The position numbers and the translations under genes are program-made. The notes beneath the pieces were generated by a model. That model was not told the DNA's origin. It searched no databases and saw only the letters and a program-made list of their open reading frames with translations. Below, in pieces: positions 15,699 through 63,269 of a stretch of 64,000 bases of DNA (position 1 is the stretch's first letter; each line of letters begins with the position of its first letter). This stretch comes from an uncultured Bacteroidota bacterium (GTDB taxonomy: Bacteria > Bacteroidota > Bacteroidia > JABEUT01): positions 1-64,000 of the forward strand of contig CAIUPO010000016.1 of the NCBI GenBank assembly GCA_903901055.1, read 5' to 3'.

Positions 15699-15708
15699 GG
15701 AAATTTAG

Positions 15709-15793
15709 AGATAAGAGATAAGATATGAGCTATAAGGGCCATTGCCGCCCGCAACACGCTTATCTCTTATCACTAATAACTCATCACTATTAT
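15709..15793. repeat. Heptamer-iteron inverted repeat, locus A
   Basis: Left AGATAAG AGATAAG ATATGAG CTATAAG (15709-15736); right CTTATCT CTTATCA CTAATAA CTCATCA CTATTAT (15759-15793); 22-nt loop. Confidence 0.8.
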
Positions 15794-18466: not shown

Positions 18467-18477
18467 AAAAGATAACA

Positions 18478-18505
18478 GTTATGAGTTATAAGTTATGAGT
18501 TATAA
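18478..18505. repeat. Heptamer iterons, locus B (single arm)
   Basis: GTTATGA GTTATAA GTTATGA GTTATAA, four exact 7-nt units. Confidence 0.85.
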
Positions 18506-48463: not shown

Positions 48464-48488
48464 TGGATGGTAAAGATACTTGAAATAG

Positions 48489-48567
48489 AGATAAGTGATA
48501 AGAGATGAGAGATAAGTGGAAGCATAGGCTAGCTTATAACTTATCTCTCATATCTCATCTCTTTTAC
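48489..48567. repeat. Heptamer-iteron inverted repeat, locus D
   Basis: Left AGATAAG TGATAAG AGATGAG AGATAAG (48489-48516); right CTTATAA CTTATCT CTCATAT CTCATCT CTTTTAC (48533-48567). Confidence 0.85.
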
Positions 48568-48575
48568 TATTTTTG
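48568..48575 (+). promoter_or_regulatory. -7 box TATTTTTG
   Basis: Directly abuts the locus D right arm; 14 nt upstream of ATG 48590. Confidence 0.5.
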
Positions 48576-48589
48576 CCCCATCAAGCCCT

Positions 48590-51395: not shown

Positions 51396-51818
51396 AGCTA
51401 AGAGGCAAGAACTAAGAGCTAAGAGTATGGAATACCCTTTAAGAGAAAAGAGCTATAAATTTGCTTTGAGGGTTATTAAACTTTATAAGTTTCAAGTTAC
51501 AGAGAATAAAGAATTTGTCCTAAGTAAGCAGGTGTTAAGAAGCGGAACTGCCATTGGGGCATTAATCAGTGAAGCCAAGTTTGGACAAAGTACGGCAGAC
51601 TTCATTTCAAAAATGAACATCGCTCTAAAAGAGGCTAATGAAACAGATTATTGGCTTTCACTTTTAAAAGACTCCGATTATATTGATGAAAAGCAATACA
51701 AAAGTCTTCATAAAGACATTAACGAATTAATTTCTATGCTGGTCTAAACGGTAAAAACATTAAAAAGCAAGAAATAGTTTGCCTTTCACTCTTAGCTCTT
51801 AGTTCTTACCTCTTAGCT
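51396..51818 (+). mobile_element. Putative heptamer-iteron element carrying a four-helix-bundle gene, locus E
   Basis: Left AGCTAAG AGGCAAG AACTAAG AGCTAAG (51396-51423); right CTTAGCT CTTAGTT CTTACCT CTTAGCT (51791-51818); 27/28 complementary. Confidence 0.6.
51427..51747 (+). CDS. Four-helix-bundle protein (23S rRNA intervening-sequence/S23 type)
   Basis: SYKFALRVIKLYKFQ, EFVLSKQVLRSGTAIGALISEAKFGQSTADFISKMNIALKEANETDYWLSLLKDSDYI. Confidence 0.92.
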   Translation: MEYPLREKSYKFALRVIKLYKFQVTENKEFVLSKQVLRSGTAIGALISEAKFGQSTADFISKMNIALKEANETDYWLSLLKDSDYIDEKQYKSLHKDINELISMLV

Positions 51819-52342
51819 TAGAGATGCATGTCGTCGAGTATAATATGCAGCACCATTGAGTGAAAATTCTCAACAATTCCAAAACTCTTTATTGGAATAA
51901 TAATATTGGCATCACCTAATTTGCCAAGGGAGTTTTCTTTATTGAAACCGCTTAGGGTGATAATCTTACCACCTATTTCTTTGGCTTTGCGGGTAGCATT
52001 CAAAATGTTTTTTGACTCGCCGGAACTACTGATAGCAACCAGCAAATCACCTGGCAAAAACTGGGCAATAATCCATTCTTCCATAGCTTTTTCCCAACCG
52101 TAATCATTGGCATAGCAGGTTATCATTGCCGCATCGGTAAACGACATAGTATGCTTGCGGCCCATCTTCATGTAATCTTCCATCATGTGCGAACAGATGG
52201 AGTTAGAGCCACCATTGCCAATAAAGAAAATACGTTGGTGAGCCTTTAAAAGTTCAGCCGCTTTAGCGGAAGCACTTTTTACTTCCTCCGATGCAAAATA
52301 AGTTGCAAAATCATTTTGATATTGAGACCAGTGTTTAGACAT
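51818..52342 (-). CDS. SIS-domain (GmhA-like) sugar isomerase
   Basis: RIFFIGNGGSNSICSHMMEDYMKMGRK, LVAISSSGESKNILNATRKAKEIGGKIITLSGF. Confidence 0.9.
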   Translation of the reverse strand: MSKHWSQYQNDFATYFASEEVKSASAKAAELLKAHQRIFFIGNGGSNSICSHMMEDYMKMGRKHTMSFTDAAMITCYANDYGWEKAMEEWIIAQFLPGDLLVAISSSGESKNILNATRKAKEIGGKIITLSGFNKENSLGKLGDANIIIPIKSFGIVENFHSMVLHIILDDMHL

Positions 52343-63183: not shown

Positions 63184-63193
63184 GGCAAAGCAG

Positions 63194-63269
63194 GTATAAG
63201 ATATGAGCTATAAGATAAGGCCAGCCACTATTAACATATAACTTACGACTTATGGCTTACGACTTATAT
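63194..63269. repeat. Heptamer-iteron inverted repeat, locus G
   Basis: Left GTATAAG ATATGAG CTATAAG (63194-63214); right CTTACGA CTTATGG CTTACGA CTTATAT (63242-63269). Confidence 0.85.

What the first reader, a model, noticed from the sequence alone, without database searches (positions are those of the whole stretch)
51396..51818. Locus E: four-helix-bundle gene enclosed by inverted 4x7-nt iteron arrays, a candidate minimal mobile or RNA-structured element
The left array is AGCTAAG AGGCAAG AACTAAG AGCTAAG and ends 3 nt before the ATG. The right array is CTTAGCT CTTAGTT CTTACCT CTTAGCT. The reverse complement of the right array matches the left in 27/28 positions in the same word order, and the mismatch becomes a G-U pair in minus-strand RNA. 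The element fits exactly between the pruA stop (51390) and the SIS gene stop (51818-51820). The only ORF belongs to the 23S rRNA intervening-sequence (S23/IVP) four-helix-bundle family. Members of that family are known inside rRNA intervening sequences with paired ends, and DGR Avd proteins share the fold. The same architecture at a protein-gene intergenic site suggests an autonomous unit whose protein might recognise the heptamer arms. The mobility and function are inference.
Basis: partly seen in the sequence, partly recalled or inferred. Interest (0 to 1): 0.88.

Follow-up and report, generated by a model that had tools for sequence, protein, structure and literature searches.

The report
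Four-helix-bundle element with heptamer arms
A 420-base piece of DNA between two ordinary bacterial genes is one copy of a widespread, apparently mobile element whose single small protein is almost always enclosed by two mirror-image rows of seven-letter repeats, and much shorter copies without the gene are scattered through the same genomes; how it moves is unknown.

Summary
Across 136 S23/IVP (PF05635/TIGR02436) loci from Bacteroidota and about ten other phyla, 97% carry the period-7 and/or inverted-arm signature (control positions 5.9%); the best period is 7 in 130 of 136. Each element has its own heptamer, shared by both arms; heptamer distance tracks protein distance (Mantel r 0.53). Y1-transposase flanks show none (0/20). 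Sites behave as insertions: ruvX/def is occupied in two genomes and empty in seven; related copies sit at unrelated loci. ORF-less 75-100 bp hairpins with the same heptamers occur in tens of copies per genome; an IVP-free congener has almost none. The protein is under strong purifying selection (dN/dS about 0.02) and folds like BT_0352 and Avd. The S23-coding 23S rRNA intervening sequence of Coxiella also has heptameric repeats in its stem (published), so the rRNA type and this intergenic type look like one kind of element. The mechanism is unknown: no nuclease or recombinase domain, no consistent target duplication, no reverse transcriptase in this genome, and Y1 transposase not required.

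The parts
51396..51425 (+). left heptamer arm, AGCTAAG-type, four units plus 2-3 nt
   Evidence: nearly unchanged in G002
51427..51747 (+). S23/IVP four-helix-bundle gene (106 aa, truncated relative to the G002 orthologue)
   Evidence: dN/dS 0.02 vs G002
51748..51777 (+). remnant of the lost basic C-terminal tail codons (in frame after the premature TAA)
   Evidence: alignment with G002
51789..51818 (-). right heptamer arm, inverted copy of the left, overlapping the SIS-gene stop by 1 nt
48487..48573 (.). ORF-less hairpin of the same design (AGATAAG/AGATGAG units), sharing its heptamer with the G000 accB-accC IVP element
15707..15788 (.). ORF-less inverted heptamer hairpin (AGATAAG family)
63190..63268 (.). 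degenerate ORF-less heptamer hairpin, also present at the same site in G002
18477..18505 (+). single AGTTATG/AGTTATA heptamer array, same units as the high-copy hairpin family (43 forward and 29 reverse pattern matches in G000)

Best explanation
The locus is one copy of a family of minimal mobile elements made of an S23/IVP four-helix-bundle gene between two inverted arrays of about four tandem heptamers, whose sequence is specific to each element lineage. Shown here: the architecture is near-universal for the protein family; sites are polymorphic, with empty versions in relatives; related copies lie at unrelated loci; and tens of short hairpins with the same arms but no gene (MITE-like) populate genomes that have the gene. 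Inferred: the IVP protein, whose relatives crystallise as five-subunit rings, binds its cognate heptamer stem as folded single-stranded DNA or RNA, marks or synapses the two ends, and lets host enzymes copy or insert the hairpin near gene ends; the gene-less hairpins use the protein in trans. When an element lands in a 23S rRNA gene it is the known S23-coding intervening sequence, removed from the RNA by RNase III.
For: Architecture: all four copies in the own genome, 20 further same-genus loci, class-wide and cross-phylum sets, cyanobacterial, Treponema and Chloroflexota plasmids 7/7; pooled 97% of 136 vs 5.9% control, period 7 in 130/136; Y1-transposase control 0/20. Insertion: ruvX/def filled in G000 and G002, empty in G001, G003, G005, G006, G007, G009, G011; accB/accC empty in six genomes; pruA/SIS lacks the element in G006. 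Related copies at different loci share arms (L045/L046, 82.8% ORF identity, unrelated flanks). MITE-like hairpins: only period 7 is enriched in 416 kb (44 vs 0 in a shuffle); AGTTATR-family matches 60+62 in G002, 0 for the reversed pattern, 72-110 bp hairpins at unrelated sites with partly similar loops, several starting GACC like the accB-accC IVP element. Dependence: 22 arrays/511 kb in IVP-bearing vs 2/261 kb in IVP-free congeners, p 0.004; class sample 7/346 kb vs 0/272 kb, p 0.017. Protein constraint and cognate heptamers. Coxiella rRNA IVS stem has tandem GACAGAT heptamers varying in number between strains (PMC4990558).
Against: No recognised nuclease, recombinase or RT domain; no consistent target-site duplication; movement never observed. 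Some re-occupied sites (accB-accC, carbonic-anhydrase) hold elements more divergent than their flanks and with different heptamers, which simple vertical descent does not explain. The def copy shows 95% identity in the element and about 100 bp around it against 77% further out, which could be ordinary homologous recombination. A few elements have period 6, 8 or 9, and four loci lack the signature. Sampled short contigs of G002 showed no arrays in 124 kb.
Confidence: 0.7

Rival explanations
1. The heptamer hairpins are the mobile units, moved by an unrelated enzyme (for example a Y1/REP-associated transposase), and the IVP gene is a passenger caught inside some hairpins.
For: Hairpins without the gene far outnumber those with it; Y1_Tnp is present in 47 of 60 relatives and its copy number correlates with IVP number (rho 0.44).
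Against: IVP genes lie in hairpins in 97% of cases; IVP is the only gene seen inside a heptamer pair in the sampled sequence, though several sampled loci were chosen for having it; protein and heptamer co-vary; Y1 loci have no heptamer arms (0/20), the one read in full has other palindromes, and one genome has 12 IVP genes and no Y1.
Confidence: 0.17
2. It is an RNA processing or translation-control module kept for host benefit: the stem is cut by RNase III or bound by IVP to regulate neighbouring mRNAs, with little or no mobility of its own.
For: Very low dN/dS; arms conserved between G000 and G002 although synonymous sites are near saturation; arms fold very stably in both strands; TAACTGA heptamers before start codons were proposed as translational sites (PMC4679880); the Coxiella IVS is RNase III-processed (PMC4990558).
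Against: Empty sites, patchy occupancy, spread across many phyla at 55-70% protein identity, and dispersed gene-less copies at unrelated sites. Three of four copies in the own genome are damaged.
Confidence: 0.12
3. A retroelement: IVP acts like DGR Avd and a reverse transcriptase in trans copies the hairpin RNA into DNA.
For: Same fold as Avd (TM 0.7-0.8) and a weak sequence match to the Avd model.
Against: No reverse transcriptase in G000, G002 or G006, nor in 33 of 49 IVP-bearing relatives.
Confidence: 0.05
4. Ordinary short tandem repeats made by slippage around a small gene.
For: Exact 7-nt length differences occur between orthologues (def element; PMC4990558).
Against: Slippage does not create matching inverted arrays on both sides of one gene family in many phyla, nor enrichment of period 7 only.
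Confidence: 0.01

Closest known systems
S23-coding intervening sequence (IVS) of 23S rRNA (Leptospira, Coxiella and others)
   Same: Same protein family, similar length (428 nt vs 423), complementary ends forming a long stem, and in Coxiella tandem heptameric repeats (GACAGAT) in that stem with strain-variable number (PMC4990558).
   Different: Here between protein-coding genes, not in rRNA; multi-copy with element-specific heptamers; accompanied by many gene-less hairpins. Mobility of the rRNA type had only been hypothesised.
REP/REPIN hairpins with RAYT (Y1) transposase, and bacterial MITEs in general
   Same: Short dispersed intergenic hairpins plus a rarer gene-bearing partner in the same genome.
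   Different: Partner gene is a four-helix bundle without transposase motifs; arms are tandem heptamers. Y1 genes in these genomes lack heptamer arms.
Heptamer repeats: TAACTGA arrays of Beggiatoaceae, Cyanobacteria and Bacteroidota (PMC4679880); cyanobacterial STRR repeats (from memory)
   Same: Intergenic tandem heptamers close to start and stop codons, copy number varying by 7 nt, mixed related units, patchy taxonomy.
   Different: Described mainly as direct repeats with no protein partner; in the TAACTGA paper the words 'four helix' and 'S23' do not occur. The link proposed here has not been tested on those repeat sets.
DGR accessory protein Avd
   Same: Four-helix-bundle fold, five-chain crystals.
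   Different: Sequence score far below the Avd cut-off (23.7 vs 80); no RT in the genome.

Membership tests
S23/IVP protein family (PF05635, TIGR02436) | match above curated cut-off | tested here: met
   98.9 vs 33.8 bits; 102.5 vs 24 bits
S23/IVP protein family (PF05635, TIGR02436) | four-helix-bundle fold as in BT_0352 and XCC0516 | tested here: met
   model of the G002 orthologue, pLDDT 95, TM 0.91 to 2rld
23S rRNA intervening sequence | located inside a 23S rRNA gene | tested here: not met
   between pruA and a SIS gene; no Rfam match in the window
23S rRNA intervening sequence | complementary termini forming a stem around an S23 ORF | tested here: met
23S rRNA intervening sequence | excision from RNA by RNase III | not testable with these tools
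   needs RNA mapping
Insertion sequence | encodes a known type of transposase | tested here: not met
   only PF05635 significant in the sole ORF
Insertion sequence | target-site duplication | tested here: inconclusive
   none evident by eye at filled/empty sites or gene-less hairpins; one imperfect ~21-bp direct repeat around L130
Diversity-generating retroelement (Avd) | Avd family score and RT partner | tested here: not met
   23.7 bits vs cut-off 80; no RVT_1 in genome
MITE-type non-autonomous elements (for the gene-less hairpins) | many short copies at unrelated sites sharing ends with a gene-bearing element | tested here: met
REPIN/RAYT | Y1 transposase gene flanked by the same repeats | tested here: not met
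   0/20 Y1 loci with heptamer arms

The most novel reading that the evidence does not exclude
A class of autonomous mobile elements, spread over many bacterial phyla, that carries no known nuclease: a five-subunit four-helix-bundle ring recognises lineage-specific heptamer stems and, with host enzymes, moves both its own gene and swarms of gene-less hairpins. The S23-type rRNA intervening sequences, and possibly the long-unexplained heptamer repeats of Bacteroidota, Cyanobacteria and Beggiatoaceae, would be its manifestations.
Probability: 0.45. Interest if true: 0.93.

Novelty: new variant of a known kind. Interest (0 to 1): 0.83.

Why it matters
Four-helix-bundle (S23/IVP) genes are multi-copy in most genomes of this class and present in many other phyla, with solved structures but no function. 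Heptamer repeats have been reported for years without an agent. Finding that the two form one element gives both a testable role, explains why these genes turn up inside operons, cas loci and rRNA genes, and raises the question of how DNA can spread without a recognisable recombinase.

Tried and rejected
Reverse-transcriptase partner: rejected as a general requirement. Y1 transposase as mover: abundance correlates, but no heptamer arms at Y1 loci and it is not required. Arms derived anew from the target: rejected, because related copies at different loci share heptamers. Conserved mismatch positions within arms (unit 3 left, unit 2 right): visible by eye in Bacteroides, only a weak excess when tallied, so not claimed. 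Orthologous-site arm replacement as concerted evolution: not claimed, because those ORFs are more divergent than their flanks. A class-level search centred on another phylum was not possible. Ten literature searches found no description of the general architecture; most subscription papers are not in that library.

Full report
OBSERVATION. The 106-aa ORF at 51427-51747 is an S23/IVP protein (PF05635, TIGR02436). The arms give an inverted-repeat score of 30.5 against a shuffle maximum of 13.5. The copy is slightly damaged: the orthologue in a same-genus genome (G002, public name KR3_bin-0479) is 116 aa, and a TCA-to-TAA change removes the basic tail in the window copy.

GENERALITY. The own genome holds five PF05635 matches representing four copies. 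All four are enclosed by inverted heptamer arrays, each with a different heptamer: AGCTAAG, AGATAAG, AGTGAAT/AGTGAAA and ACTATGA. Thirty loci from across the class, twenty same-genus loci, eighty loci from a genome-collection scan covering Bacteroidota, Desulfobacterota, Nitrospirota, Chloroflexota, Calditrichota, Planctomycetota, Acidobacteriota, Lentisphaeria, Gammaproteobacteria, Clostridia and Patescibacteria, and seven plasmid loci from Cyanobacteria, Treponema and Chlorohelix show the same. Pooled, 132 of 136 loci (97%) pass a criterion met by 5.9% of random positions; the best period is 7 in 130, and 8, 9 or 6 in the rest. Flanks of Y1 transposase genes, another small mobile gene mostly from the same genomes, pass in 0 of 20.

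ARMS AND PROTEIN BELONG TOGETHER. Left and right arms of one element share the heptamer, while elements differ from each other. Across 84 elements heptamer distance grows with protein distance (Mantel r 0.53, p 0.0005); co-inheritance alone could produce this, so it is consistent with but does not prove specific recognition. Between G000 and G002 the window protein has dN 0.02 and dS 1.07, and the arms are nearly unchanged, so both protein and arms are under selection.

INSERTION BEHAVIOUR. The ruvX-def site is filled in G000 and G002 and empty, with the same neighbours, in seven other genomes of the genus; the accB-accC site is empty in six. G006 lacks the element between pruA and the SIS gene and has an unrelated short palindrome there. 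In G002 two related copies with the same heptamer lie at unrelated loci (L045, L046). The def element is about 95% identical between G000 and G002 within the element and roughly 100 bp on each side, but 73-80% beyond; this looks like transfer with co-converted flanks, from one case only. At accB-accC and at the carbonic-anhydrase site the same position is held by more divergent elements with different heptamers, so sites may be re-used.

GENE-LESS HAIRPINS. In 416 kb of three related genomes only period 7 is enriched among tandem arrays: 44 above threshold, 0 in a dinucleotide shuffle, other periods 0-2. Many arrays form hairpins without a gene, including window 15707-15788 and 48487-48573. 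They use the heptamers of IVP elements found in these genomes. The pattern AGTTATRAGTTATRAGTTAT has 122 matches in G002, 72 in G000 and 68 in G006, with none for the reversed pattern, arranged as inverted pairs some 50 bp apart. Seventeen pairs, 72-110 bp long, were measured in twenty fetched sites: unrelated flanks, partly similar loops, some starting GACC like the inner border of the G002 accB-accC IVP element whose arms have the same unit order. A hairpin after mutS in G002 is absent from G000 and G006. The IVP-free congener G007 has 2 arrays in 261 kb against 22 in 511 kb of IVP-bearing congeners after removing IVP arms (p 0.004), and IVP-free genomes of the class have 0 in 272 kb against 7 in 346 kb (p 0.017). 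The contigs were not chosen at random in every case, so these p values are indicative.

PROTEIN. The predicted fold (pLDDT 95) matches BT_0352 (2rld, TM 0.91), XCC0516 (2gsc) and, more distantly, Avd alone and in the DGR ribonucleoprotein (4dwl, 8ub7). XCC0516 was published as five four-helix bundles (title cited in PMC3936711). Invariant residues include Q35, E49, S55, F59, E72 and E100. No nuclease or recombinase domain is recognised.

MECHANISM. Shown: conserved architecture, presence/absence polymorphism, dispersed copies with and without gene, constraint on protein and arms. Inferred: the ring binds the folded arm of its own lineage and marks or pairs the ends; host enzymes do the chemistry. 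RT-based copying is unlikely because G000, G002 and G006 lack RVT_1. Y1 transposases are common but not required: G020 has 12 IVP genes and no Y1. No consistent target duplication was seen.

KNOWN RELATIVES. The Coxiella 23S rRNA IVS (428 nt, S23 ORF, 28-bp stem cut by RNase III) has tandem GACAGAT heptamers upstream of its ORF, varying in number between strains (PMC4990558). That is the same architecture inside an rRNA gene. Its authors record mobility only as a hypothesis. TAACTGA heptamer arrays in Beggiatoaceae, Cyanobacteria and Bacteroidota were suspected to spread by an unknown mobile element (PMC4679880). I therefore class the window locus as a new (intergenic, multi-copy, MITE-accompanied) variant of the S23 intervening-sequence kind. 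The wider claim, that this is one recombinase-less element class, is given as the novel case.

LIMITS. Most genomes are metagenome assemblies; element ends are set by the arms rather than by observed transposition; the literature library lacks most subscription journals, so a prior description cannot be excluded.

Noticed in passing
L211 (Anabaena cylindrica plasmid), L210 (Planktothrix plasmid), L212 (Chlorohelix plasmid): Heptamer-armed IVP genes sit between cas2 and cas1, between DISARM drmD and BREX pglX, and between a helicase and a DNA methylase. The 18 IVP genes reported in cas loci (PMC3936711) may be such insertions rather than CRISPR accessory genes.
   Followed up: partly
L075/L076, ruvX-def site: Identity between G000 and G002 is about 95% in the element and ~100 bp of flank, 73-80% beyond: a homing-like co-conversion profile.
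   Followed up: partly
L130:1320-1930: IVP element just after a 5S rRNA gene, flanked by an imperfect ~21-bp direct repeat (TTGCCGGGCTTTTTTTATTTA), possibly a target duplication or a repeated terminator.
   Followed up: no
L037 (G006), between pruA and the SIS gene: The IVP-free site carries a different short palindromic repeat (GTCATTGCGAGAAACGAAGAAATCTC type), so the intergenic spot seems to attract small elements.
   Followed up: no
L006, L025, L027: IVP elements with period-8 arms, so the unit length is not strictly seven.
   Followed up: no
G002:C121:91994-92338 (L064): A Y1/RAYT-type transposase flanked by AGCTCCGTCAGGAGC-like REP palindromes, a second independent hairpin system in these genomes.
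   Followed up: partly
window 48480-48580: G002 and G006 have differently sequenced hairpin-like stretches at the same intergenic position as the G000 heptamer hairpin.
   Followed up: no
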